Assembly (NCBI GenBank): GCA_001600175.1
Contig: BCJC01000001.1
Span: forward strand, 2,093,652 to 2,157,651
DNA length: 64,000 nucleotides
Reading direction: 5' to 3'
Origin: Erythrobasidium yunnanense
Taxonomy: Eukaryota; Basidiomycota; Cystobasidiomycetes; Erythrobasidiales; Erythrobasidiaceae
A model generated the notes under the pieces. It had not been told where the DNA came from. It worked only from the letters and a program-made list of their open reading frames with translations, and did no database searches. Numbering within the stretch: the first letter of the stretch is position 1; the number at the start of each line of letters is the position of its first letter. Made by a program: the position numbers and the translations under genes. Of the stretch, positions 11,495 through 64,000 are shown in pieces.

Positions 11495-14400
11495 ATGGAC
11501 TTCGCTGGGGATTCATTCACAGAAGTCGATGAACCAGGCATTCAGCAAAGCCAGGCAGCTAGCAGTACCGGTACAGCGAATGGCGTGAATGCACACACGT
11601 CGACATCGAATGGATCGTCATACCAAGGCGCCGCGAGTTCGAGCTCAAATGGTCAACAAACATCCGATGAAATCGTGCAAAAACATAGTAGCGACATGCA
11701 GGCCAATCGGTCTGGTGAAGGGAGCAACAATAACGATGATGATCTGATCTATACGGGACGTCAAGGGCCAATCATGCCGATACAACCAAAACGCGAATTG
11801 CAGCATGTCACAAGCACAGCTTCCAGGCCGCCCGTTGCATCTCCTTCAGCTACGGGTGACTATGCACGCTACGCACAGCATAACTATGGTGCTAGACCTT
11901 ATCCAGCCGCAAATGGACATACACAGCCAATCCTCCCAGCTCCAGGGTATACAAGCAATATGGGCAGGATACCGGTTGTCAACGGCAGCAATGCTCGATA
12001 TCCTACACATGGAGGCTTCTCTGGTTATGCACATCCACATCCTGGCTACGGCCCACCTCTTGGCAGCCCAGTTTATGGACGCGCGCCTCAACCGCAATAT
12101 GGCTACCCTTCTCAACCAGGCTCGGCATCAATATCCAGTCCTCATCCGTCATCCAGTCAGGTGTCCGCTGGTCAGAGCAGTCAGAAGACATCAAGCCAAG
12201 TCATCGATCTTACCGAAGGTGACGATGCAAGCGATTCAGAGGGCTCAGACGAAGTGACAGTAAAGGCAGAGAAGATACCTCCACCGAAGGCAGAAGAAGA
12301 TGAGGACAACGATGATCTTCAGATCGTATCGGAGACGAAGACGGAAGCTACTGCGCCAATATGCATCGGCCAGATTACTGGAGTCGCCCTTATTCTGTAT
12401 CCAATATCGGAACTCACAGCTATACCGCCGGCAAACACTGCAGCAGCTCTTACGCAGCCACCACCTCCGATGCGCATCCTCATGAACCGGTCTGCCCAGC
12501 AGTTTCACAATGGCCTTTCAAACGAAACTGTCAAGCTCTACTCTGCCAATACGAAGGAGAACTTTGGAGTGCTGGAACATCGTCTAGCGAACGTACTTGG
12601 TCCTTTGATGACGCGGGATAATCGGAGAGGCAGAGGTATCTGGATGGAAGCATGGGTGCTTCGCACACGAGAGCGCAATGTGAGTTGATGAACCAAATGC
12701 ATTGTGGTGACAAGCTTATATATTCTTCTACAGCCCATGATGCTTCAGCTACTTATGCTTCTGTTCTGTCATCCGCAAGTTGTCCAGCATGTTTCGGCTC
12801 AGCTAGAGAAGAATACGATATACCTTCAACATCCCGTCTCGTACGAGCCATCAGTGCATGGCGGTTTCAAGTATTACAACCCTCATGGATCGATGTATCA
12901 GTCTGCAGATGCCGAAAGACGGAGGAGAGAGGTTATGAGCGGTCTTGGAGGCACTTACACAGCGCGCTACCCTGCGCAAGCGCCTAAATCTGTGGAAGTT
13001 CAAAGAGAACAAGTGGAAGATATGTTCAAAAGCATGAAAAGTGGTGCAGATCTTGGAGAAGCCGAGCCGGATCAGGCCGTCAGCACACAGATGTATCCTC
13101 ATCAGAAGCAAGCTTTGGCTTTTCTACTGGATCGGGAGAAGTTGCGCGATACCGACAACCTGAAGGTCAAGAAGAAGGAAATGACAGAAGCTATCGATCA
13201 AGAAGACGATACAAACATGATATCGCTGTGGAAGCCAAGACGCGATATGTACGGCCGCTTCGTAGGCTGGCATAACGTCGTTACCGAAGTCGAATGTGGA
13301 AACGACAGACCGCCGCCGCAATGCCGTGGTGCAATACTGGCAGACGATATGGGTCTCGGCAAGACAATCGTAATCATCGCTCTTATAGCCTCCACCAAAT
13401 TCGAGGCTAAACTCTTCTCTGCTGGCACACCTACAAAAGATCGTCTAGGCTCCAGCTTCGACGCCCTAGCTGCGCATCCTGTCGGGAAACAAGCCGGTCA
13501 GGCCATGTCTTTAGCAAATTCTGGCTTCTCGACGCCTATTTTCGGCAAGAGCAACGGCGTTTCTACGCAGGATGTACTGACTGGAATGAAAGCTAACGCC
13601 AAGGGCAAGAAGAAGGGCGAAAGTAAGACACAGAAGAAGCGGGAAGAGCTTGAAGAGGCACGGCTGAAGAAGCTCAAGATACGGAGTCGTGGCACGCTGA
13701 TAGTGTGTCCGCTGTCGACCGTGGTGAATTGGGAATCACAGCTTGATGAGCATATCGGGATAAGCAGCAGTACAGTCACTCGAAAGCGAAGAGGCGATGA
13801 TAGCGGGACTTCCACTCCGACCGCAGGAGCAGGCCTATCGGTCTACATCTATCACGGCAACAATCGAACATCAGACCTGGCGACCCTTGCAGACCATGAT
13901 GTAGTCATTACGACGTTCAGTACGCTTGGAAGCGAGTATTCTCGACAAGCACGAAAAGAAGAGCAGGATGAAGAGGGAAGCTCAAGCTCAGATGGAGGGA
14001 TAGAGGAGCTAGATGCGGACGGTCAACCCGTCAAGCAGAAAGGCAAGAAGCGAAAGAGAAAGAAGATTGAGGGTAATGCGGACAGCGCCCTTCAGCAGAT
14101 CGAATGGTTCAGAGTCGTACTCGACGAAGCTCAGTACGTGCAGCTTATTGCGTCAGCAGGTCTCGACTGACTTAGTCATTCCGCAGCATGATCAAGGAAC
14201 ATACTACCATCCAAGCACGAGCATGCTGTGCTTTAATGGCGGAAAGAAGAGTCTGTCTGACCGGAACACCGGTACAAAATTCCCTGAACGATCTTTTCTC
14301 CTTACTTCGCTTCCTACGCCTCGAGCCTTTTACCGATCGCGGTATATGGTCATCATATGTGGGATCACCTTGCAAAGTTGGCGATCCGCTGGGTGTGTCA

Positions 14401-16020
14401 CGTCTACAGCTTATCATGCGGCATCTGGCCCTCCGACGCACAAAGAACAGCACCGATAAAGAAGGCAAACCTATTTTATCCATCCCACCGAAGAAAGACG
14501 AGATCAAATACTTGCAGCTGGATGAGCAGGAGAAGGCGTTCTACTCTGCGCATCACAGGCGCTATAAGCACAATTTCGAAATGCTTGAACGATCGGATAC
14601 TCTGCTCAAAAATTACTGTAGCATTCTTCAAGAGGTACTTCGACTGCGTCAGATCTGTGCACATATGGGTCTGGTGCGGGATAGCGAAGATCGAGCAGAT
14701 CTTGCGAAAGGAGACGATGCTGGCGATGTAGTTAGCGCAATCAAAGCGCATGGTATATCTAAGAGAAGAGCGCTTCGGCTGCTGGCCCTGATGCGAGACA
14801 CAGGCGCTGCACAATGTGGTGAATGTGGACTCGAGCTGGCGTCAGGCGGGCTGAGCACTACGCAAGATCCCGATGAGGAAGATGGGAGCAAAGATCGCAA
14901 GAAGAAAGCGAGATCAAGTAGAAGGACGGTCAAGGAGGAGAACGATGCGGTCGACAATGCCACCACACAGACACCAATACTTACGAAATGCCAACATTTG
15001 TTTTGCCTAGAATGCTTCAAAACGAACATCTGTCCGAAGTTTCCGAACATCTCAGCGACGGACCGGTCCACTTGTTCGATATGTCGAGAAGAAATTTCTC
15101 CTGTCATCGATGCCGTACAGATATCATCGTCGGATATCGACAGTCTCGGAGCGGGAGACGGCGATGAGGACACGACTACGATACGAGGCAGCAGGACAAT
15201 TGAGCATAGTACCAAGATCCGGTAAGAAGACTTCTTACCGAAATGACCTATAGCTAATGAGTATATGGTAGAGCGCTGGTGTCCGATCTATTCCCGCTTT
15301 CACAAAACAACCCAGCCTCAGCCAACTATGCAGGAGGAACAGTAGACTTGACTATCGTTGACGAAGACGAACAATTCCGGCCACAGCCAAACGAATCCAT
15401 CAAGACTGTCATCTTCTCACAATGGACCGCTTTACTCGATCGGTGCGTCAATTGATTTGCCTTTCCTGTACTCTGCTGACGATTGCATGCGCAGATGCGA
15501 GGATGCTCTACACGAATGTAGAATCAAATTCACTCGCTTAGACGGGGGTATGAGCCGTCCGGAGCGTACAAGAGCCCTAAACAGCTTCAAGAACGATCCT
15601 TCCGTTGAAGTGATGCTTATCTCCTTACGAGCTGGCGGTGTGGGGTAAGCAGCTCCGCCTTCTTCCTTCAGACTGTAGCTGATGAACCGCTTGTAGCCTC
15701 AATCTCACGCACGCCTCGCGTGTATATATACTAGAACCTTCCTGGAACCCCTCTGTGGAGAATCAGGCGGTCGATCGATGTCATCGTTTAGGGCAGGTTC
15801 GACCTGTCAAAGTCTCCAGATTGATCGTCCAAGATTCCATCGAAGCCAATATGCTTCAGATACAAAAGCGGAAGATAGACTTGTGAGTCTTTCCGCATCT
15901 TGCCGAGGGTCCGGCTGACATCGTGCGATTTCCAGAGCCAATCTGTCACTGTCTCAAACACTGTCAAAGGCTCAGCTGGCGGAGCGAAGATTAGAGGATC
16001 TGCGTACATTGTTCAAGTAG
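11495..16020 (+). CDS. SNF2-RING DNA translocase / E3 ligase, HLTF/RAD5-like
   Basis: ATP-driven dsDNA translocase with a RING finger set between the two helicase lobes, the plan of RAD5, HLTF, ULS1 and RAD16. Seven exons (11495-12679, 12734-14133, 14187-15221, 15272-15442, 15495-15644, 15697-15882, 15936-16020) give 1403 aa. The head is Ser/Gly/Gln-rich with a SUMO-interacting motif, SQVIDLTEGDD. A segment with VKLYSANTKENFGVLEHRLA may be a degenerate HIRAN domain (tentative). Motif I is ILADDMGLGKTIVIIAL. Splicing creates the DEAH box: VVLDEAH then MIKEHTTIQARA. Motif III is LTGTPVQNS. The RING is CQHLFCLECF...CSICREE. Lobe 2 has VIFSQWTALL, LISLRAGGVGLNLT and VDRCHRLGQVRPV. DNA-damage tolerance or replication-fork remodelling is likely from the family. 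It converges with RAD16. Confidence 0.92.
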
Positions 16021-16449: not shown

Positions 16450-19400
16450 CTACATCGTGAAGAGGAAAGAAAGGTCTTCGGGTGTAAGTCGTCCCATGGC
16501 CGAGTCGTCGTCTTGAAGGACACTGCCGACCATGTCTGCCTTCTTCTTGCCGAGCTCCACAATCTTGGACTCGATAGAGTTCTCGATAATAAATCGCTTG
16601 ACGATGACCGGGCGGTGCTAGTACAGACAGGCGATCACGTTAGCAGAGCAGCAGCAAGGAGAGTCGAGCAGTGCCTACTTGGCCAATGCGATGAATACTG
16701 TGACGAGATAGTGATCAGCGAATGTCTATAAACCCGTGCGAGGCACACTGACCGATCCATAGCCTGGTATTCTGGAAAGGATGCAGAATTAGTTAGGGAA
16801 CAGAAGGGCGGTTTCGGGGCATTCTCACCGCTCGCTGGATTCCACTACGCAGAGCATCGTTAGCTTGTTATGTGAAGGCCCCGAAGGTCGCTGCTCACCC
16901 AAGGATCCATAATATAGACTCTGGAGGCCTCGGTAAGATTGAGGGCGACACCACCAGCTTTCAAAGACAGAAGGAAGACTGTACAGTCTGTAGTATTCAT
17001 AAAATACTTGACAGTCCTGTCTCTTGCTTCGGGAGTCATGCTGCCTTGCAGTCTAGCGATTTTGAAGCCGGCTAGCTGAAGACGTCGAGCGATAAGGTCG
17101 AGGAAGCTTGTGAACTGCGAGAAGACTAGACTCTTGATTGAATGATCACTTGTCTTAAGCTGACTGAGCTCCTCCACCAGAGCTTCAATCTTCGTGCTGG
17201 TTCGCCACTTTCCAGGATCGATCTTCTCGAGCATGCCTTGTTTGGCTTGCAAGACTTCTTCACTCGTTTCTTGATGTAGGTCAATAGTAAGGGGTAGATG
17301 GCAGACCGGGCATTCGGGCTCCATCTCCATAGCAGTCTCCAGGTATTGTCGGATACAGTCTCGGCAGAAGACATGTCGACACTTGCTGAGAATAGGGTCG
17401 TCTGCTTCATCAAGACATACTCGACATGTCGAGAAGGATACGGCGGCTGAGGTAGCACTCTCGCCAAGCAGGGCTTTGGCGGTTCGACCTTTCAACACTA
17501 GGTCAGGGTGACAAGCGGTTTCTATAGTACCGACTTAGCGATAATTTCTGCATGTATTCATTGACTTACGTCGCATTCGGGTCAATAGCTGAAAGACATT
17601 GGCATAGTTGTTCAGGAGCGAGTCTGCCGCTACGAATGTCGAGAAAGTACGCTTGACGTCCGAGTAAAGTGAAGAGTAGAATTCTTCCTCTTCTTCAGTG
17701 AAGAAGTCTCTTCTGACGGAGACGTCTCGAGGTCTGAAGGTTCGGTCAGCTTTCGTGCAGCCAATAGCAACAGGCCACTCACGGCAGACCCATATCATCT
17801 GCTCGCTCAACCTTTGTCCTTCGCAGCATCATTCTTGCCAATAGTAAAGAAAGCTTCTCGAAAGCACCGCTACCGTGACCTCCGTTGGTCGCACCATACT
17901 TCTGAATAGGCTTTAGAATTTCGTTATTCCAGTAACAAATATGGTGCATCGGTGTATGACCACACTCGTCACAGGTTCTCTTGTTGCTGAAACGCCAGTG
18001 CAAAGCTTTGCAAGGGCATCTCTTGCAGTAATAGTATGCGAAGGGATCGGCTCCCAAGAATCGAATCAGGGAGTATAGCTCTCCGACACTGACTCAGATG
18101 TTAGCCTTGCCCTCGAACCTGACTGCTGCGTACTTACCGATTCTGCAAGGGAGTACCAGACAGACACCACTTGAACTTGGCTTGCAAGGCGAAAGCGCCT
18201 CGTGCCGTGTTGCAGGATCGGTCCTTAATATTATGTGCTTCGTCAAGAATGACACGATGCCAGTCAATTTTGTGCAAGACGCTCTCTTCCTTGATCAATT
18301 CTCCCTTTCGCTTGAAGCCGGTATTCTGCCTTCTAAAACTGCTCTCCAAGACGGCATAACTCGTCATAATGATGTCGTACTTCAACAGTTCCTTCGTATC
18401 TGTTACTCTGTTTCCACCATGCCAGACACAGACTTTCATGCCAGAGGTGAACTTGTTGAACTCGTTTCGCCATTGCATGATAGCTACTGTCGGCGCCAAG
18501 ATAAGAGTATGCTTTCTCTGATTCGGGTTGTAGTCTGATAGGATCAGGGCAATAGTCTGGATGGTCTTGCCCATGCCCATTTCGTCGGCAAGCATTCCAC
18601 CCATCCATGGACCCTTCTCTTGCTGCAACATCCAATAGAGACCTTCTTTTTGGAAAGGTAACAGCTTGAGAGACAGTCCATCAGGCTGCTCCTGCTCGAT
18701 AGGCTTGATAACGGGAAGAAGCTTCAAATCGCTCCATACAGTCGCGAGTTCGGGATGGAATTTCTCGAGAGCTACTTCATTCTTCTCCCACCAAGTGAGC
18801 TTTTTGTCAGTCTTCTTTGCACGTTTCGCTCGAACTTTCTTGAACTTGGCCATGGCTAGAGAAAAGGAGGTGAGCCGCTGAACGAGGATTGTGTCGTGTA
18901 GCATCGCTTACCAGCCTCTGGATTGCCTTCGTTCTCCAGGTCTTTGACGATATCATCGATGTCTGTCAGATCGTCCGAATCTTCCTCATCATTTGCTTTC
19001 TTCTCTTCTTGCGTGAACTCTGCTTCGCTTTCGGTTTCCATTGCATCATCGGAGTCTACTTTGAAATCGCTTCCACTTTCCTCTTCATTGTCCGAGGCGA
19101 CCTTCTTGGCTTTGCCCTTGCCCTTGACATCGGCTCTGCCTTTACCCTTTGCTGCAGATGATGCAACCTTCTTCTTCGTGTCCTCCTTCAACTTTGCGAG
19201 CGTCCTTCTAGCCGAGGTAGCTACTGCAGATGAAGCGCGGCTGCTGATTGTGCTGGGACTTGCGGACGATTCTTTGGCTTTGCCTTTGTCTTTAGCCATA
19301 GCCCGTACCACGATAGCACTAGCAACCTTTTTGGCGGTTGCAGCCATCTCCGAATCACTGTCCAGCTCATCGTCTTCCTCCGCTGAGTCTGAAACTACCG

Positions 19401-50774: not shown

Positions 50775-52097
50775 ATGAACTCGAAGCCCTCAACTCGCCA
50801 AAACAGTCTCGATCGCACACAGGGTTCCGCCTCAGATCAGGCAAGCTCGATCTCGGGAGTGTCAAATACTTCATCCAAGGGTTCGAAGCCTAGATCCCGA
50901 CAATCCAGCGCCAGCATGTCCAGTCGAGCCTCTTCATTCTCGCAGAAGTCGGCTGCGTCATCGCGTAGAAATTCGACGGACAACCAGAGTATTGTCTCGA
51001 TGAACGAGTCTCTCTTCAGCCGTAAGCGGTTCCCTGCTCACTTGGACATCTACGAAGTGGACTGAGTGATGCATTGTATCTATCTCGCAGGGGCCGGCTC
51101 TGTCGCGTCAGTCAAGACCACCGCTTCTGCCAATTCCGTCAAGTCCGGAGTGATTGCAGACCTGTATGACAAATTCCGAGATCTGGATGCCTTGAACGCC
51201 GACCGCAATCGCAACTTCGAGTCTGCGCCTATAGCTGTTGAAGAAGCTACAGTGCACCGGTCTGGCAGAGCTGGCGTCAGGCAATACGTAAAGCGCAGTA
51301 TCGAGAAAATAGTAGATCCGGCTGCTCTGGATCGCCTAATGGACGGTTACAAGCCTAGCGAGCGTACGTACTCCAAGAGTTACAAACTCCGCTGCAAGCA
51401 CAAGGATGCAGCTCGTGGCACAGATCAGCTGGTTGTTGAGGCTGGCATTCAGTCTGGTCTCTATGTCGGCTCAAGCATGCTCCACCACACATTTGGCAAA
51501 CGCCAGCAAGAAAGACGTGACTTCGCCAAAGTCGCAGACAACCTAGGCCTGCGCCCAGGGACGCTGGACCAATGCGACATCAAGAAAGTCATGAATGGGA
51601 AAGTCGCCGCCAACGATAAGCAGAAAAATGCAGTCTGGAATGCGTTTCATGAGCCCAACACGTTCCATGAAGGCATTGAGGAAGCGGCCTCGAATATGAC
51701 TGGCGGCATCACCGGTCTGAGTGGAGGAGCTCAAGCCAAGCCTATCGACGAATTCACTGAACGACTCCCTAGGACCATTAGGAAGGATGGCGGTGTGGCT
51801 CTGGGCAAGGTACACGGCGAAGTATATCAAGGCCATAAACGTCTTGGTGAAGGCAAGCTTCGCCGTAATTTTACCAGAATGTCCAATAAGATGGCAGATA
51901 TGGATGCAGGCATTGGAGTCGGCATACAGAAAGAAAAAGTCATGATCGATGGTAACGGCAAGGTTACCAGAAAATCGCAAGAAAGGAAAGCTGGACGTCT
52001 CCCAGAGTCGGACGACGTTCTTGAGCAGATGCTGGAAGGTACTTGGCGAAAAGCTACGCCTAGAAAGCCCTCGTCTGTAACTAAGAGCGAGGCTTAA
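50775..52097 (+). CDS. Unknown protein, MNESLFS family, copy 1
   Basis: Exons 50775-51021 and 51091-52097 give 417 aa. The head (MNSKPSTRQNSLDRTQGS...) is almost all Ser, Arg, Gln and Asn and surely disordered. Exon 1 ends in the motif SIVSMNESLFS at a phase-1 intron that is conserved in copy 2. The body has SVKSGVIADLYDKFRDLDAL, IAVEEATVHRSGRAGVRQY, KDAARGTDQLVVEAGIQSGL, DNLGLRPGTLDQCDIKKVM and AVWNAFHEPNTFHEGIEEA. The end is rich in basic residues (KSQERKAGRLPESDDVLEQM, then RKATPRKPSS). No signal peptide, membrane segment or known domain. I do not recognise the family and assign no function. Confidence 0.8.
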
Positions 52098-52974: not shown

Positions 52975-54282
52975 ATGTCATCCAAAGCATCCAGTCGCAG
53001 CGTCAGCATCAAGAGGCCATCGATCGGAGCTTCAAGCCAAGCAAGCTCTTCATGCTCATCAAGTTCGTCTGCCCAATCATATGGATCCCATTCCCCTTTG
53101 AAGAAGACTATGACTGGCCATTCGAGCAGAGCTTCCTCAACGTCTGGAGCTTCCTCTAGAGAATCATCGAGACCCTCTCGCAGATCTTCCACTGACAGCG
53201 GCGAAAGCATGGTGTCCATGAATGAGTCTCTATTCAGCCGTACGCATCTGCAAATATGGCTGCTTCCCTTAAGAACTGACCCAATGTTGTTACCTGCAGA
53301 CACCGGCAGCCAACGTAGTGCCGATTCTGTCGAGTCAGGCGTAATCCCAGCTTTATACGATCAAATTAGCAGACTGGACTCACTGCCCGATACCGGTCTG
53401 GACCTTTTCAGTAAGGCCAAGGATACACGCCCTATTGCAATCGAGGAGGCTGTCATCAACCGCTCCGGAAGAGCCGGCGTCAGACAGTATGGACAGCGAC
53501 AGATAGAGAAGCGAGTCGACAACAACAAGCTGCGCTCTATCTTGATCAAGCACCCACCCAGAGAGAGCTGGTTGGGCTTAACGAAAGAATACCGCCTTCG
53601 ACATACGCACAGGGACCCAGCTCTAGGTACAGATCAGCTAGTGGTCAAGCTAGGGGCGGAATATGGAACATATACCGGCGAGTCATCCGTCAAGTATATT
53701 CACGGCAAGCGCTCGAAGGAGACTCGAGGCTTTGTCAAGGTTGCGGATGGCTTGGGCTTGCGGCCTGGAACTCTCGACTCGTGCTCCATCAAAAGAGTGA
53801 GACATGCAACCAAGCCAAGCCATAATAAACAAAGCAACGCTCTGTGGAATGCCTTTGAAGATCCGAAGACTTTCAACAAGCAAATCAATGCAACAGCGTT
53901 GGAAATGACAGGCGGCGTTGTCGGACTCAAAGGCAAGGCGACGATACAAGCTCTGAACACATCGCGAAACACGGAACGCGACATTGCAGACGAAGGGGAT
54001 GTCAACCTCAACAAGATTTGCGAGGAACGTTACCTTGGACCAGAGGGCCTTCCTGACAGCAAGTTGAGCAGGACATTCATGAAGATGCCTAACAAGCTTC
54101 GGGACTTGGAAGCGATGAGAGGCTTTGGGATGCAGAAGGACAAGGTTAAGACAGTCAATGGCGACATCATCCGGAAGTCGCAGGAGATGGTTCGCGGTCG
54201 ACTTCCAAAGTCAGATGGACCCCTGGAGAGCATTCTGCAGGACACATGGAAGAAGATGACTCCTTCCCGACCATCAAAGTGA
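52975..54282 (+). CDS. Unknown protein, MNESLFS family, copy 2
   Basis: Exons 52975-53239 and 53300-54282 give 415 aa. Same build as copy 1 at 50775-52097: a Ser-rich head (MSSKASSRSVSIKRPSIGAS), then SMVSMNESLFS right at a phase-1 intron. The body has SVESGVIPALYDQISRLDSL, IAIEEAVINRSGRAGVRQYG, RDPALGTDQLVVKLGAEYGT, DGLGLRPGTLDSCSIKRVR, ALWNAFEDPKTFNKQINATA, and the end IRKSQEMVRGRLPKSDGPLE, then KKMTPSRPSK. By eye, the two copies share perhaps 40-50 percent of residues in the body, so the duplication is not recent. The conserved head motif in an otherwise free-running Ser-rich region suggests a binding or modification site. Confidence 0.8.
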   Translation: MSSKASSRSVSIKRPSIGASSQASSSCSSSSSAQSYGSHSPLKKTMTGHSSRASSTSGASSRESSRPSRRSSTDSGESMVSMNESLFSRTHLQIWLLPLRTDPMLLPADTGSQRSADSVESGVIPALYDQISRLDSLPDTGLDLFSKAKDTRPIAIEEAVINRSGRAGVRQYGQRQIEKRVDNNKLRSILIKHPPRESWLGLTKEYRLRHTHRDPALGTDQLVVKLGAEYGTYTGESSVKYIHGKRSKETRGFVKVADGLGLRPGTLDSCSIKRVRHATKPSHNKQSNALWNAFEDPKTFNKQINATALEMTGGVVGLKGKATIQALNTSRNTERDIADEGDVNLNKICEERYLGPEGLPDSKLSRTFMKMPNKLRDLEAMRGFGMQKDKVKTVNGDIIRKSQEMVRGRLPKSDGPLESILQDTWKKMTPSRPSK

Positions 54283-56935: not shown

Positions 56936-59619
56936 ATGGCGATGGCCGCAGCTCAGCGTCTGGCTGCTGCTGATGGCAAGAAGAAGAGAAGTAGAAGTCG
57001 GCGAAACAGCGACAACGACGGTGATGGCCCGTCAAAGTCGCAAAAACAGCAAAGAAAGCCTATCAAAACCGCTGCTACTCCTCCCGCTATGTCTGCCGTA
57101 GCTGCAAGAAAGCTAGCCCTGATGAAAGAGCAAGAAGAAGCAAGCAAGAACGGTCAAAGAGACAAGCAAGAAGAAGAACAAGATGCTGCAGATGTAGCCC
57201 GTATTTATACTGAAACGGCATCGAGTCAAGACGATGTTGCTGGCCCTACCGAGTCTGAGGACAAGCAAGAAATCTCTGCTTTGAATGACATCCTAGATGA
57301 CGAGGAAGTTGATGGAGACGATGGGAATGACTCGGATAATATGCTAGCTGTGCCATCTACGTCCAAGAAGCCAGCCGGGAAACGATCTAAACGATACTTT
57401 TCTGCAAATGCTCAAGCTTCCGCTGAAGCGACCGAGACTGGCAGCGATCCAGAGACAGAGACAGTCGATGATCTAACTGGTCCGAATGCCTCCTACTCTG
57501 AGCCTACAACACCCTTGCGACCGAGAAAGAGAGCGAAACGCCGGAGGAGAGGCGATGATCACAGAAAGTAGGTTGTCATTTGCTTCCTAAGTGGCCGTCA
57601 AAGACTGACAAGATAATTTTCGCAGTGCGTACTTTGATCCAGAGTGCGTATCAAGCTGGAAGCCGGTGTACGAGCAGAACTGCTTCTCAGTCAAGCATCC
57701 GCATGATTCGGCTCAGAAAGGCTATATAATCGCCATGCAGCCAGGAGAGGTGCATCAATAGCTATGGTAATATTCTGCCTCAGAGCTGACCCTGTGGTCT
57801 CTGCAGACTCTCATGATCAAGGGAATAGCGAGTCTTCGCATTCTTCGAGGAAGCGTCACCATCGACTGCAGAGTCCTAGACACTACATCCCAGCCATTCA
57901 CCCTTTTCGCACCTACCACACACCCTCTACCCGTTCTACGAGCTAGTTATGCTCAAGCTAGTTCTTCTGCACCTTCGACCAAGCTACACCTGCCTGACGG
58001 CCTGGCGTTCTCCGAAGTACTGGAAGCTTATCCTGTCGTCATCCTCATACAAGATCTTCAAACTGGCATCGAGGGCGTCGAAGTAGTCGCCAAAGTCGCT
58101 GGAATGCCTATACCCATCAACGGCTTCTGGACGTCGCAATTTACAGGGCCGCAGATGATATCAGGCAGTACATTCGAATTGGTAAGGATATAGTGCGAGG
58201 TATTGCCTATCGGCAAGCTGACTTAACGATCTTTGACCAGATTACCCAACCAGAGCGCGACATTACGGCTACTTTACTGCCGGATAATTGGATGGAAGCG
58301 CTTTCTGCGATCGGTACCGATACCCCTGAAGAGATTAATGACATAGACGAAGGCGATACATATCTCGTCCAAGGACCAAAAGGCGTTGGCAAGAGTACTT
58401 TTGCGAAATTGCTGGTCAACAGGTTGCTCTCTACGTAAGTGTCTGTCAACGTTGGATGATCATAAGCTGATCAAGCTATTCCGGTGTATTCAGACATGAC
58501 ACTATTGCATATCTCGAATGTGACATTGGGCAGACAGAGCTTACTCCGCCAGGTCTCGTCAGCCTGCAGTTGCTATCGCAGCCTATCATCGGTATGGACA
58601 GCAAGCGTAGCTACAACTCATTGACTAAGCCTCAACCCGCAGGTCCGGCCTTTACGCAGACATATCGCTTACATACTGCTGCACGGTCGCACTACCTTGG
58701 GAGTGTGTCTCCGAAGAACAACCCTAGCTACTATCTTGACTCGATTCAAGATCTTCTCGCTCACTATAACCAGCGGCGTGATACTGCCGACGCTGCTCTA
58801 CCGCTTGTTATCAACACCCAAGGCTGGGTCAAAGGTCTAGGAGCAGATCTGCTTGGCGAGATCCACCGCATGGCAACTCCATCAAGGATATTCGACTTCT
58901 CCCCTCCTTCAGCAGATTTGTCCTTTGCTTCTTACGATGTCGAACCCTCGTCGATGCCGACGACATTCTTACAGCCAATGTCACAACCGGCAGAGTATGG
59001 TCCGACTCGTCTGAACCCTTCCGATCTACGCACTTTGAGCCTTATATCCTATTTGCATCTTGAAGGCCAGCAAGATACGGCTTCTACGCCGCGCTGGAAC
59101 TTCGATCGCTCACTCGTCGCTCAAAGCCCTTTCGCGGTCTCTTGGTCGACTTTCAAGCAGATTCGATTGCTAAGCAGCGAGCATATCGTGTATGAAGAGC
59201 TGCTCAATGCGCTCGATGTCAGCATCGTCTCGCTCGAAAGCTTGGAAGACCCGCAGATATCAAATCCTGAGCAAGCCCTCGCTTATGACCCACAATCTTC
59301 CGGGCAAACGCCTGCCGGAACCTGCTTAGGACTTGGCGTGATCCGAGCAATCGACAAATCGGCTTCGGCTTTTCACATTCTGTCGAATCTGCCCGGTCAA
59401 TTGCTAGATAAAGTGAACTCCATCAGCAAAGGCGACATAGAGCTCCCTACGGCGCTTATGATAGACTACATCGACGCTCCGGACGATCAAGAGGGAGTCT
59501 GTGAAGTACCTTGGAAGAACCTGCCATACCTCGAAAGTCGCGAAGATCAGCAAGCTGGAGTAGGCTATAGCAAACGTAGAGTCAGGCGGAACGTTATGAG
59601 AAGGAGTCAGTTCCGATAA
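56936..59619 (+). CDS. GRC3: Polynucleotide 5'-hydroxyl kinase GRC3
   Basis: CLP1/NOL9-family kinase that phosphorylates the 5' end of pre-rRNA at ITS2 together with the Las1 nuclease; nucleolar. Exons 56936-57567, 57626-57749, 57807-58181, 58241-58434, 58494-58591 and 58643-59619 give 799 aa. The head is Lys/Arg then acidic. The N-terminal beta domain has CFSVKHPHD, TLMIKGIASLRILRGSVTID and YPVVILIQDLQTGIEGV. The Walker A is YLVQGPKGVGKSTFAKLLVN and Walker B YLECDIGQTELTPPGLVSL. Then LVINTQGWVKGLGADLLGEI (lid/clasp motif), and a C-terminal domain with GLGVIRAIDKSASAFHIL. The last intron (58592-58642) is 51 nt, a multiple of three without stops; splicing gives QPIIGPAFTQT, which fits the family. 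Confidence 0.93.
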
Positions 59620-59745
59620 CAAATGTCAGCTATGCAGTGCCGGTCATGACTTAGGCAATAAACCGGAAAGCAATGTGGCGTTAAAGTAAGCCGCATGAAG
59701 AACGCGCGGTGGTCGAAGAAATGAGCACAAAGTTGAGCGCGTATC

Positions 59746-60387
59746 TCAAAACCCCTGCTTGCGCCAGTATCCATGCCTACGCGTCACGAATTGGCCACCG
59801 TCGAGCCGGCGAAAGACTCTGTCTGTTGCCTTCAGATGCGAGGCCTCCTTCTCAAACCATCCTATACCGTATATCCCCTCTCTACCTCCAGTAAGCTGAA
59901 TGTGGATTGGACCGATACGTCCTGCATGCTTTTCGACTTCGCAGATCATGCCGACATATTCCAGGTGCTCTTCGTTTCGGGATCGATCTTGTTTAGTAAT
60001 GCGATGCTTCATGAGGGCGTATGCTCTGTCCTTCACCGTCTTCTTGGATACCAGAAGGGACGTCGTCGGATCACTATAGTAGACCTGGCCTACCTGAGCC
60101 TCCTCTCCCGGTCCCAGCCGGCCATCGTTGCTCACAAGATGAGTCTCACTGGGATAAGCGTCAAAGTAAAGGCAGCTTGAACCTTCGTTTGACGTTTCGA
60201 TGCCCTTGAGAGTGCCAAATCGCCTGTAGCGAGTGATAGGGAGGCGGCCTTTGCCAATGGTCTGAATGGCATCTTCATCCCGGACATATCCACTCCTAGC
60301 CGATGGTACTGAAGAGGCAGAGGAAGCAGAGGAGTGGACTGAGCAGCTGCTGCGCGGTCTGCTGCTGATGCTGCGTGGTTGGGGCAT
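59746..60387 (-). CDS. Array unit A: unknown two-module protein
   Basis: Intact frame of 213 aa from MPQPRSISSRPRSSCS. The Ser-rich head ends SSASSVPSARSGYVRDEDA. Module 1: ITRYRRFGTLKGIETSNEG through AQVGQVYYSDPTTS and KKTVKDRAYALMKHR. Linker: ITKQDRSRNEEH. Module 2: LEYVGMICEVEKHAGRIGP, with a later basic end, VFRRLDGGQFVTRRHGYWRK. The heads, the ring of Gly and Tyr positions and the TVK/TMK-x-R box are shared with units B-D, so this is one gene family in head-to-tail order. No signal peptide, no membrane helix, no catalytic motif. Function unknown; the alternating hydrophobic pattern and short size of each module suggest small beta-barrels. Confidence 0.7.
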   Translation of the reverse strand: MPQPRSISSRPRSSCSVHSSASSASSVPSARSGYVRDEDAIQTIGKGRLPITRYRRFGTLKGIETSNEGSSCLYFDAYPSETHLVSNDGRLGPGEEAQVGQVYYSDPTTSLLVSKKTVKDRAYALMKHRITKQDRSRNEEHLEYVGMICEVEKHAGRIGPIHIQLTGGREGIYGIGWFEKEASHLKATDRVFRRLDGGQFVTRRHGYWRKQGF

Positions 60388-60512
60388 CCCTGCGATCGTG
60401 CTTGACGTTGCGTGTGCAGAGAACAGAGGCAAGGCCTCAATCTGCTCCACCTCCCTCCTCCCTGAACACTCCCTTCTGTGATTTCCCCTGAAAGGTCAAG
60501 CTTGTGCGTTGC

Positions 60513-60537
60513 TGACCGGTCCTTTCAACACCGGTCA
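60513..60537. promoter_or_regulatory. Inverted repeat and GGTCAAG sites upstream of unit A
   Basis: TGACCGGT (60513-60520) and its perfect complement ACCGGTCA (60530-60537) flank a 9-nt loop, 126-150 bp upstream of the unit A start. GGTCAAG occurs three times around it (60494, 60533, 60553). Likely operator for a dimeric factor, by inference. Confidence 0.45.
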
Positions 60538-60661
60538 AGGGGACTTTAGAGAGGTCAAGCTAATAGTACTTGCATTGAAGCACTGATTGCTCGATCGAAA
60601 GACAAGAGAGGTCCGAATGCATCAGAGAACAACATCCTCCTTGTGTGCCCTCCAAAGGCTT

Positions 60662-61315
60662 TTAAGCCTTTCTGGCGATGTAAAGACCGCCCCTCGAATT
60701 TCTATCGACTAGCAGTCCAGTCTTGAGCATCGAGGCATCCTCAAAGCAGTCGGCGCTGATGGAGAGGTGATGTCCCGCTGCAGTACAGACGATGACTTTG
60801 TGGATAGCGACGTTAGGCGAGCTCTTGATCTTCGTGATGCATCCAACATATGTAGACTATACGGCAGCATTGTCGCTTGCGATTGCCTTCCTGAGAGCTC
60901 GCAGAGCCGGAGGGTTTGTACTGTTGCATTTGACATCTCTTTGGAGGATGCGAGCCGCCCTATCGATAACGAGAGCTTCTGTCCGATCCTTCATCGTGCT
61001 TCGAGGCACCCATCCATTTCTGCTATTGTAGTAGATCTCCCCGACTTTGCGTACTTGTCCAGCTTCGAGGATGCCCAGAGAGCCACCCGACATAAAGCCA
61101 AGGGGATAGGTATCGAATTTGACGATGTGTTCTCGCCCTGTCCAATGCGGTTCGGCCGACGCAAGCGTGCCTGCACGGGTATACCGCACTGTTCTTGCAG
61201 ACTCCCTGATGCCGTTCGCATTGGCATCGTGCTCGTAGCCACTCCTTGCTGAGACTACGGAAGAGGCACTCGAGCTGCCGGAGATAGACCCTCTGTTGCT
61301 CCGTGGAGATGCCAT
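60662..61315 (-). pseudogene. Array unit B: two-module paralog interrupted by an in-frame TAG
   Basis: The frame from MASPRSNRGSISGSSSASSV runs 152 aa to TAG at 60857-60859. In the same frame, immediately after it, the second module follows (STYVGCITKIKSSPNVAIHK ... FEDASMLKTGLLVDRNSRGG, then LYIARKA) to TAA at 60662-60664. Head and module 1 match the family: SARSGYEHDANANG, RTVRYTRAGTLASAEPHW, RKVGEIYYNSRNGWVP, STMKDRTEALVIDRAA. The stop sits in the linker one codon before the expected start of module 2. Splicing out a 78-nt stretch with a weak GTCAAA donor would restore the frame, but it would also remove linker residues that look conserved. So this is a recent pseudogene, a deliberately short protein, or a read-through case. 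Confidence 0.55.
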
Positions 61316-61802
61316 GGATGAACGATAAGCGCTGGTTGTTCTGCGTACAGGCGAGGTGGAAGAGCTCGGCGTTTGAAGAACACGGTTGGGGCAGTGTGGC
61401 TCTTGGTTTGGCTCACAATGACTAAATGCGATTGCCGAATCTGTGCCTACGCTTCGCTTGGAAAGCAAGCAGAGGCTGCAAAGAGACTGATGTAGTCGAT
61501 GTCCTGGAAAGGGAATAATGACAATGGACTGTCGCTGGGAGATGCTGAAAGGAGGCTTTCAAAAAGAAAAAGGGAGTGCTTTAGTCTGATTTCGAAGTGT
61601 GAAAAGTGAAGGTTTAGCAACGGGAGCGAGGGGCGTTTGAGGCTATAGAGGATGGCTTGCCATCTCCACCTGTCATCGGGCCACGGAAGAAGGGCTCAAA
61701 CAAGCAGCTTATGTCGAGCTTTGATTGACGCACAGGTGTCAATCGTGATAAGCCTGACAAGGTTCTTTAACAGATACGAAAGCTTACCCCTCGCTTGAGA
61801 CC
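61316..61802. other. Spacer between array units B and C
   Basis: 487 bp upstream of unit B's start and downstream of unit C's end. An open frame extends upstream of unit B's ATG but lacks an ATG and is poor in conserved residues. No other feature seen. Confidence 0.4.
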
Positions 61803-62725
61803 TCATTGGCCCTCCGTGGCCATGTATACCATGCCACACGCGGTTTTGCATACCAAAGCACCGACCTTGAGATCATTCGGGTTTCCAAATTGACCGGATC
61901 GCAAGTCAAACCTCACCGCCGGAAACTTTACCTTACCCGAAGGCTTTACGACTTTGACAATCTTACGATCCGCATGGTGTCCGTGGATTTGTCCGAATTC
62001 GACGTCGTTACGTACTTCGACAATGCAGCCAAAGTAGTCCGGATCTTCTTTGGCCACAAGACCGCTACACCGTGGCGTTCCCGAACGATGGTACACAACC
62101 ATACCAACTTTAGGCAGCGTCGAGTCTCGGTAGTGTTTTGTCGTATTTGGCTGAAGTATGCCTGCAGAGGTAGCAACCTGTGCTGTCCAACCGAAGATGT
62201 CTGTCTTGATTATGTCTACGACGTAGCCGAAGTACTCAAGCTTGTCATTGGACTTGCATCGGACTTTTTCGTAGCGGCTGTAGTCTGCCTATCTCGATTC
62301 CTCGCTGCTGCGATTGCAGCTCTTTTGTGAGCTTTCTTGGCTCTGTCGATGGCCAGATCATCGCTTCTGCGCTGCATCGTACCTTTCGACACCCATCCCC
62401 TACTGTCGCCGGTATAATAGACTCTGTCCCAGATAGCTTCTTCACCAGGTGCTAGGGCATCATTACCGCAAGATAGGAATACATTACCCTCCGGGTAGCG
62501 GGATATTTCGACAAGGGCGCGACCTTTTCCAAGAGGCTTAGTGCAAGCAAGTTTGCCTAGGCGTTCATAGCGAGTCGTCCTCAAAGAAGGTCTCACGCCG
62601 TTGACGTCGGGGTCTTCGAGGTAACCGCTTCTGGACGAAGGGACAGAGGAGGCTACCGAAGCTTGAGAGCTTGATGACATAGACCCGGACGATATCGGAG
62701 ATCGTTTGCTGGCTGGCTTTGACAT
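61803..62725 (-). pseudogene. Array unit C: three-module paralog with a frame change in the linker
   Basis: The frame from MSKPASKRSPISSGSMSSSS runs 169 aa and closes at 62216. Head and module 1 are typical: SSVPSSRSGYLEDPDVNG, TTRYERLGKLACTKPLG, RVYYTGDSRGWVSKG, TMQRRSDDLAIDRAKK. Modules 2 and 3 lie in another frame: KLEYFGYVVDIIKTDIFGW (from 62234) and DPDYFGCIVEVRNDVEFGQI (from 62036), to TGA at 61803-61805 (end YMATEGQ). The two frames overlap for about 50 nt around an A5 run (T5 at 62265-62269 on the plus strand). No intron with usual signals resolves it. A one-base indel (real or assembly error) or a ribosomal frameshift are the options. The downstream part keeps family residues, so any disablement is recent. 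Confidence 0.55.
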
Positions 62726-63168
62726 TGTTGTAGACTGAACTTTGTGATCGTTGCTGAGAGCAGAGGGAAAGCAGGGTCAGAGCACGTCTGGAACTTGTTA
62801 CGTCGAGTCGACCTACTCGATGACTTCGCACACCTGCTAGCTTGCTGTTCCTCGCTGCCTTTGCGTGAAGAGCCAAGAGAGAGCGGAGCGTCAGTGCGGG
62901 GCTTTTGTGTGCGAGCCATTGAAAGGGGGCCCTCGAGTGTAAGGGACGAAAAGAGAGGGAGCACGCAGGAGAGAGTCAAGGGAGGAACATACTAGAGGGG
63001 TGCAGAGGTATGCCTTTCGTCGGTCTAAAGGCACACGGAGGTCTGGCCATAATGCAATTAATTTATCGAGCGACAGTAAGCTCTTACTAAAGCAGCTCGT
63101 GATCATCGTATTCCTAAAACCTAAAAGATGCTCTGATAGACACGGTGGGTGAACGGGTGCTTGAAGCC
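62726..63168. other. Spacer between array units C and D
   Basis: 443 bp with no conserved coding sequence. It serves as promoter of unit C and 3' region of unit D. Confidence 0.4.
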
Positions 63169-64000
63169 TCATTTGCCATGGGTGGCCGTGTATCCCTTTT
63201 CATCCCGGCATTTCCGAACCAGGGTACCGATCTTAAGCGCACTCGGGTTCTTGAATTCAGAGGCGTCCAGCCAAGCTCTCCAGCCTTCGCAACTCAGGAC
63301 TTGGACATGCTTGGTTTCTGTGCGGCGGTCGAAGTTTTGTCCGAGAGTGATACTATGACGCTTCTCAACGATGCAGCCGAAGTAGGTAGGGTCTCGCTTG
63401 GCCTTAAAAGACCCCCACCACGGTCCTCCCGGGCGCTTGCACCGGTATACGAGCATGCCGTTCTCAGGCAGCGTCGAACCTCGGTAATGCTTGATCGTAG
63501 TAGGCTTGAGTACGTCTGTAGATGTAACGACTTGTGCTGTCATACTAGGGACATCTGTCGTGGTGATGTGTACGATGTATCCGAAGTATTCGAGCTTGTC
63601 TTTTTCTAGGTCAACGCTTGCAGCAAGGACTGACTCATCAGATACCGCCGCGGTACGGATATCTCGTTCTTTGATTGCTGCTTCGGCTCTGATTCGCGCT
63701 TCGTCTGCTCTTGCCGTCGCAAGAGCGCCGGCCCTGCTTTTCATCGTTTCCCTCGAGGCGTAGCCATCCTTGCTATTGGTGTAGAGGACTTGACCCACGT
63801 CCGGCCTTTGTCCACGCTCAAGAGCACTTTCAGCAAAGCCCACCTTGCCGCCTCGAGAGCGGGCTACCGTCAACCACTTAGGTTCACCCTCTTCAAATTG
63901 TTGAATGCTTTCAAGACGGCCCAGGCGCTCGTAGCGGACTGTTTCCTTGGAGGGCAATCTTCCTTTAATGTCAGGGTCGCGCAAGTAGCCACTCCTAGTT
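63169..64000 (-). CDS. Array unit D: three-module paralog, 5' end outside the window
   Basis: Open from the window edge (TRSGYLRDPDIKGRLP) to the stop at 63169-63171; at least 276 aa visible. It is the most complete member seen. Module 1: YERLGRLESIQQFEEGEP ... DVGQVLYTNSKDGYASRETM. A Lys/Glu/Ala helix-like linker follows (RADEARIRAEAAIKERDIRT). Module 2: YFGYIVHITTTDVPSMTAQV ... ENGMLVYRCKRPGGPWWGS. Module 3: YFGCIVEKRHSITLGQNFDR ... LKIGTLVRKCRDEKGYTATH. The linker is uninterrupted here, unlike in units B and C. The Ser-rich head and start codon must lie beyond 64000. No known domain recognised. Confidence 0.75.
   Translation of the reverse strand, partial: TRSGYLRDPDIKGRLPSKETVRYERLGRLESIQQFEEGEPKWLTVARSRGGKVGFAESALERGQRPDVGQVLYTNSKDGYASRETMKSRAGALATARADEARIRAEAAIKERDIRTAAVSDESVLAASVDLEKDKLEYFGYIVHITTTDVPSMTAQVVTSTDVLKPTTIKHYRGSTLPENGMLVYRCKRPGGPWWGSFKAKRDPTYFGCIVEKRHSITLGQNFDRRTETKHVQVLSCEGWRAWLDASEFKNPSALKIGTLVRKCRDEKGYTATHGK
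63172..63933 (-). repeat. Three internal protein modules of unit D
   Basis: Coding repeats at about 63742-63933 (module 1), 63397-63588 (module 2) and 63172-63384 (module 3). Each is about 64-71 codons. Shared marks are Y-x-(R)-x-G or Y-F-G at the start, a hydrophobic beta-like strand after it, a central (L/S)-x(2-6)-G-x-(L/V)-(V/L)-(Y/R) strand and an aromatic or Gly-rich end (GYAS, WWGS, GYTA). Modules 2 and 3 are closer to each other than to module 1. Confidence 0.6.

What the first reader, a model, noticed from the sequence alone, without database searches (positions are those of the whole stretch)
59746..64000. Undescribed head-to-tail array of at least four paralogs with modular Y-x-G repeats
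Units A-D are consecutive, same-strand, share a Ser-rich head ending SGY, a TVRYxRxGxL opening, a VGxVYY strand and a T(V/M)K-x-R box, and match no family I know. Module number differs between units (two or three). This is the pattern of a fast-evolving lineage-specific family made by local duplication. Cytoplasmic or nuclear location is likely because no signal peptide is seen.
Basis: partly seen in the sequence, partly recalled or inferred. Interest (0 to 1): 0.8.

Follow-up and report, generated by a model that had tools for sequence, protein, structure and literature searches.

The report
Tandem fungal genes encoding OB-like repeats
Four neighbouring copies of a fungal gene family that matched nothing in the libraries searched seem to encode proteins made of small barrel-shaped modules of a kind that often binds RNA; two of the four copies have interrupted reading frames.

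Summary
Four paralogous units lie head to tail on the minus strand (D runs off the window). They share a Ser-rich head ending RSGY and a first module with 13 of 88 alignment columns invariant. D and C have three modules, B and A two, but only D and A are single open frames: in B a TAG separates module 1 from the last module; in C, module 1 and modules 2-3 lie in different frames. Library, PDB-sequence, phage, viral-contig and prokaryote searches gave no significant match. No fungal collection was available, so "lineage-specific" is untested. AlphaFold2 shows five strands in each module of D (module 1 alone: pLDDT 86.9). Weak leads (Unr cold-shock, PAN/Rpt and DHX8 chains) suggest an OB-like barrel; none is significant. 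All six ORFs are basic (pI 9.1-10.3). Best reading: an orphan family of OB-like repeat proteins, probably in RNA or RNP binding, spread by local duplication, with two copies decayed or spliced in an unproven way. Cold-shock-family membership is not met. A second orphan tandem pair lies about 5.5 kb away. Moderate interest.

The parts
59746..60387 (-). Unit A, continuous ORF of 213 aa: Ser-rich head, module 1 (60025-60234), last module of type 3 (59749-59961)
60857..61315 (-). Unit B, first ORF, 152 aa: Ser-rich head and module 1 (60983-61189), ending at TAG 60859-60857
60665..60856 (-). Unit B, type-3 module in the same frame after the TAG, 64 codons open
62216..62725 (-). Unit C, first ORF, 169 aa: Ser-rich head and module 1 (62366-62575)
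61803..62285 (-). Unit C, modules 2 (62043-62240) and 3 (61806-62039) in another frame than module 1, 160 codons open
63169..63999 (-). Unit D, ORF open at the window's end, 276 aa: module 1 (63733-63939), predicted helical linker, module 2 (63391-63594), module 3 (63172-63387)
60283..60387 (-). Ser-rich, acid-free head of A ending RSGY (one more codon included); heads of B and C at 61229-61315 (two more codons included) and 62619-62725

Best explanation
A small tandem array of an orphan fungal gene family. Each protein is a short, probably disordered Ser-rich head followed by two or three OB-like five-stranded barrel modules; in D, module 1 is joined to modules 2-3 by a predicted long helix. 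The basic barrels most likely bind RNA or other nucleic acid, or dock on RNP proteins as the non-canonical cold-shock domains of Unr do, with the Ser-rich head as a regulatory tail. Copies arise by local duplication; A and D are continuous, B and C have lost the continuous frame between module 1 and what follows, most simply by decay. Shown: paralogy, order, module count, breaks. Predicted: the strands. Inferred: OB fold, RNA or RNP role, location, decay.
For: Paralogy. AlphaFold2 of D with 6 rows: five strands in each of three modules and helix 83-126; module 1 alone pLDDT 86.9, pTM 0.70, five strands plus helix. Foldseek of D: first of 678 hits is Drosophila Unr CSD456 at E 0.027; RPA70, DUF35 proteins and the PAN N-domain also among the 50 rows shown. 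Foldseek of module 1: a 26S proteasome chain (Rpt, by recall) with probability 0.92, TMq 0.48, rmsd 3.0, E 0.52; Unr and Csp chains also listed; 27 of the 50 rows shown (of 726) are OB-fold chains by my recall of the chain names, many redundant. Profile searches of PDB sequences: the only hit of module 1 is the DHX8 chain (its S1 domain, by recall; E 0.14), the only hits of modules 2-3 are three PAN chains (E 0.27-1.3), aligned over about beta2 to beta4. pI 9.1-10.3 in 6 of 6 ORFs.
Against: No fold match reaches E 0.001. The Unr match has probability 0.41, TMq 0.16 and rmsd 28, so it is not a good superposition; ranks 2-4 after it are exomer and LGI1-ADAM22 chains. For module 1 the highest TMq shown is 0.48 in PDB and 0.55 in the viral library; the highest TMt is 0.62 for the 50-residue chimera 8jvs, whose fold I did not check; of the 23 PDB rows not counted as OB, 11 are RNA polymerase chains and 4 cytochrome f. 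The profile of whole D (A1) also lists isopropylmalate dehydrogenase, NUP145N and restin below PAN. No family above cut-off in Pfam or NCBIfam and none better than E 0.12 in PHROGs. Module A1 has pI 6.5. Canonical RNA-binding residues are absent in 10 of 10 modules. D's module 2 is modelled poorly (pLDDT 57-70 by block), the end of the helix lies below 50, and the five models range from 70.5 to 52.1. Module 1 is not shown to be homologous to modules 2-3.
Confidence: 0.45

Rival explanations
1. The barrels bind protein or ligand, not nucleic acid: an OB- or SH3-like scaffold family, for example in self/non-self recognition or interaction with other organisms, whose divergence follows its partners.
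For: No canonical RNA-binding residues in 10 of 10 modules; low identity between neighbours (21-56% by module); PAN/Rpt chains, whose OB domain is protein-facing (recalled), are among the leads.
Against: Basic pI in 6 of 6 ORFs; dN below dS in the 5 of 13 pairs where dS is defined, so no sign of diversifying selection there.
Confidence: 0.27
2. B and C are whole genes whose parts are joined by splicing, frameshifting or stop read-through, giving short (one-module) and long forms.
For: Both breaks lie between module 1 and the next module, not inside a module; the parts behind them stay open for 64 and 160 codons. GT-AG pairs of 35-160 nt that would bridge the break in a compatible frame exist: 3 in B and 9 in C, one of them in C (98 nt, from 62382) with a donor beginning GTACG like that of the E/F gene F.
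Against: The 3 donors in B (GTGCCT, GTTATC, GTCAAA) are unlike those of the nearby introns I read by eye; the C candidate would remove most of the T-M-x-x-R box and the stretch after it that the other units keep; A and D need no such step; no control for chance GT-AG pairs was made; assembly error is as simple.
Confidence: 0.15
3. A decaying cluster: the family has little present function in this species and the copies are on the way to loss.
For: 2 of 4 copies interrupted.
Against: A and D are continuous (D as far as seen); the parts behind the breaks stay open, against chance values of 0.061 (64 codons) and 0.0009 (160 codons) from base composition, and keep family similarity.
Confidence: 0.12

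Closest known systems
Unr/CSDE1 cold-shock-domain proteins, above all their non-canonical domains (Hollmann et al. 2020, PMC7383231; abstract and seven passages seen)
   Same: Several five-stranded barrels in a row; no FGF and (F/Y)FH residues; first Foldseek hit of unit D (E 0.027).
   Different: No significant sequence or fold match (rmsd 28, TMq 0.16); Ser-rich head; no canonical cold-shock motif in 10 of 10 modules; short proteins encoded by a tandem gene family.
OB domain of the PAN/Rpt proteasomal ATPases (3h43, 2wg5, 2wg6, 5l4g_H; domain assignment partly recalled)
   Same: Only PDB profile hits of modules 2-3 (E 0.27-1.3); proteasome chains in the fold search of module 1.
   Different: No AAA+ domain in the units (no Pfam match); not significant.
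S1 domain of DHX8 (2eqs; S1 recalled)
   Same: Only PDB profile hit of module 1, over profile positions 10-80 of 85 (E 0.14).
   Different: No helicase; no Pfam match at all for 10 modules; not significant.

Membership tests
Cold-shock domain family (Csp, Unr) | RNA-binding residues FGF/YGF and (F/Y)FH of canonical domains | tested here: not met
   0 of 10 modules by pattern; residues taken from PMC7383231
Cold-shock domain family (Csp, Unr) | Match to the curated Pfam profile | tested here: not met
   0 families for 10 of 10 modules at E up to 10, subject to HMMER's filters
Cold-shock domain family (Csp, Unr) | Five-stranded antiparallel beta barrel | tested here: inconclusive
   five strands predicted per module; best fold match E 0.027 with rmsd 28; no coordinates at hand for a topology check
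S1 RNA-binding domain | Match to a Pfam profile or significant similarity to a solved S1 domain | tested here: not met
   no family; DHX8 at E 0.14 only
Secreted effector | N-terminal hydrophobic signal peptide | tested here: not met
   A, B, C: best 12-residue mean hydropathy within about the first 40 residues 0.27, 0.72, 0.24; no predictor run; D's start is not in the window
Lineage-specific fungal family | Relatives restricted to one lineage | not testable with these tools
   no genome held; no fungal collection; viral and prokaryote scans empty

The most novel reading that the evidence does not exclude
A new fungal family of OB-repeat RNP proteins, not descended from cold-shock or S1 proteins, in which B and C make both one-module and multi-module forms through splicing or recoding between module 1 and the next module.
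Probability: 0.08. Interest if true: 0.6.

Novelty: new variant of a known kind. Interest (0 to 1): 0.35.

Why it matters
It turns four anonymous units into a testable hypothesis (basic OB-like repeat proteins with a conserved Ser-rich RSGY head) and gives a compact case of local duplication and interruption in an orphan family next to conserved housekeeping genes. It would matter more if a fungal search showed wide relatives or a link to RNA control.

Tried and rejected
Whole-genome search for more copies: no genome held. Relatives in viral contigs (D, C part 2, F), prokaryote contigs (D), phages (D): none. PDB sequences with D alone: five antibody chains at E 0.22-1.1, taken as chance. Pfam Fn1_2 for D (E 0.086, 13.5 bits against a cut-off of 27), four weak PHROGs results (E 0.12-0.37, one of them a terminase family) and MapZ at E 0.86: taken as chance. 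Searches were given 5 of the 6 pieces (not B's second part). PADLOC was not searched. Viral structure library with module 1: best an unnamed entry at E 0.038, probability 1.00, TMq 0.50, not followed. hhalign of module 1 against modules 2 and 3: nothing; of 32 cross-type module pairs, 5 fell below 5% of shuffles (22-79 of 2000). A-D heads against E/F heads: 50-174 of 1000 shuffles for A and B, 12 and 17 of 1000 for C, so a common origin is not claimed. AROM against plasmids: none. Profile of E/F bodies against PDB: nothing better than E 0.81. Rfam and tRNA scans of the window: none. Literature: four searches for such a family (the last two found no paper) and two on Unr; listings only, apart from PMC7383231.

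Full report
What is there. The window's right end holds four same-strand units on the minus strand, in transcription order D (63999, cut by the window edge, to 63169), C (62725 to 61803), B (61315 to 60665) and A (60387 to 59746). A Grc3/NOL9-type gene (CLP1_P and NOL9_C domains) ends convergently at 59619. The window is eukaryotic and most likely fungal: it holds a pentafunctional AROM gene and genes with GT-AG introns (introns read by eye). No genome is held and I could not name the species.

Is it more than chance. Yes. tblastn within the window links 5 of 6 unit pairs, from 6e-45 (D-C) to 9e-12 (D-B), with D-A missing at E up to 1; its low-complexity filter and composition correction were off. 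Filtered blastp among 349 ORFs also links 5 of 6, with D-A at 2e-5 and B-A missing at 1e-4. By module, all 6 module-1 pairs and the one module-2 pair exceed each of 2000 shuffles; of 6 module-3 pairs, 2 do, 2 are reached by 2 and 6 shuffles, and 2 (D3-A3, C3-A3) do not pass 5%.

Modules. I distinguish three types. Modules 2 and 3 are probably related to each other (hhalign E 0.0016, though with a probability of only 6.5), module 1 to neither (E 0.3 and 0.81). D and C have types 1, 2, 3; B and A have types 1 and 3. A 20-nt stretch recurs at 75-100% identity in modules 2 and 3 of both C and D, so module 2 may have arisen by copying module 3 in the C/D ancestor, or was lost from A and B (inference). 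C and D agree better in modules 2 and 3 (56% and 40% identity) than in module 1 (32%); different constraint or gene conversion could explain this.

Interruptions. B's frame meets TAG after module 1; the last module follows in the same frame, open for 64 codons. C's module 1 lies in one frame and modules 2-3 in another, open for 160 codons. D and A cross the same linker without a break. Pseudogene, assembly error, intron, frameshift and read-through cannot be separated here. A scan for GT-AG pairs of 35-160 nt that would bridge the break in a compatible frame gives 3 in B, with donors unlike the nearby introns, and 9 in C, one with a GTACG donor (98 nt); no control for chance was made. The C candidate would remove part of a box that the other units keep. 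That both breaks fall in the linker rests on two cases.

Selection. In 13 module pairs NG86 dS was defined for 5; dN/dS was about 0.37 (D1-C1), 0.28 (C1-B1), 0.32 (D2-C2), 0.59 (D3-C3) and 0.67 (B3-A3), with dS from 0.93 to 2.5; in the other 8 dS could not be computed. The family is diverged and constrained; fast evolution is not shown.

Fold. AlphaFold2 of D with six rows gives mean pLDDT 70.5 and pTM 0.40, with five strands in each of three modules and a helix 83-126 after module 1 whose end is below 50. Module 1 alone, four rows, gives pLDDT 86.9 and pTM 0.70. Foldseek finds no match at E 0.001 or better for either in PDB or for module 1 among viral models. The leads still lean one way. Unr CSD456 is first of 678 for D at E 0.027, but with probability 0.41, TMq 0.16 and rmsd 28, and the next three rows are exomer and LGI1-ADAM22 chains. 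For module 1 a 26S proteasome chain has probability 0.92 and rmsd 3.0 at E 0.52, and 27 of the 50 rows printed are OB-fold chains by my recall of what those chains are, with heavy redundancy; 11 are RNA polymerase and 4 cytochrome f chains. The only PDB profile hit of module 1 is the DHX8 chain at E 0.14, and the only ones of modules 2-3 are PAN chains at E 0.27 to 1.3; whole D lists PAN first (E 0.49) with three unlike proteins below. PAN N-domains, S1 and cold-shock domains are OB folds (established knowledge). Several weak searches by two methods leaning to one fold are suggestive together; no single one is significant.

Function. pI is 9.1 to 10.3 for 6 of 6 ORFs; of 10 modules, 9 lie at 8.1-9.9 and A1 at 6.5. 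Canonical cold-shock RNA-binding residues are absent in 10 of 10 modules. Hollmann et al. 2020 (PMC7383231; abstract and seven passages seen) describe non-canonical cold-shock domains that lack these residues, have an extended beta1-beta2 loop, do not bind RNA by themselves, and influence RNA target specificity through contacts between domains. That is the closest working model: basic OB-like repeats in RNA or RNP binding, perhaps tuned by a Ser-rich tail. I give it 0.45. A protein- or ligand-binding scaffold is the chief rival.

Known or new. No match above cut-off in Pfam or NCBIfam, none better than E 0.12 in PHROGs, no significant one in PDB sequences, none in phages, viral contigs or prokaryote contigs. 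None of these is a fungal proteome set, so relatives may be common and even described. Four literature searches for such a family listed nothing that fits by title or the start of the abstract. By the tests made it is not a canonical cold-shock or S1 member.

Noticed in passing
50775-52097 (+) and 52975-54282 (+): A second orphan tandem pair (E, F): bodies 47-48% identical, no Pfam match above cut-off, Ser-rich heads sharing SMNESLFSR right before an intron inferred by eye (donors GTAAGC and GTACGC). Similar architecture to A-D, but no shown homology to them.
   Followed up: partly
62090-62249 and 63444-63603: 160 nt around module 2 of C and D are 73% identical without gaps, the longest direct repeat reported in 59600-64000; possible gene conversion or stronger constraint.
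   Followed up: no
62653-62991 (-): An ORF upstream of and overlapping the start of unit C, in another frame, with an ATG near 62920; it could hold an extra 5' exon or be a chance frame.
   Followed up: no
12692-15225 (+) and 18134-18907 (-): Two SNF2-family genes about 3 kb apart in opposite orientation; the first also has weak RING matches below Pfam's cut-off.
   Followed up: no
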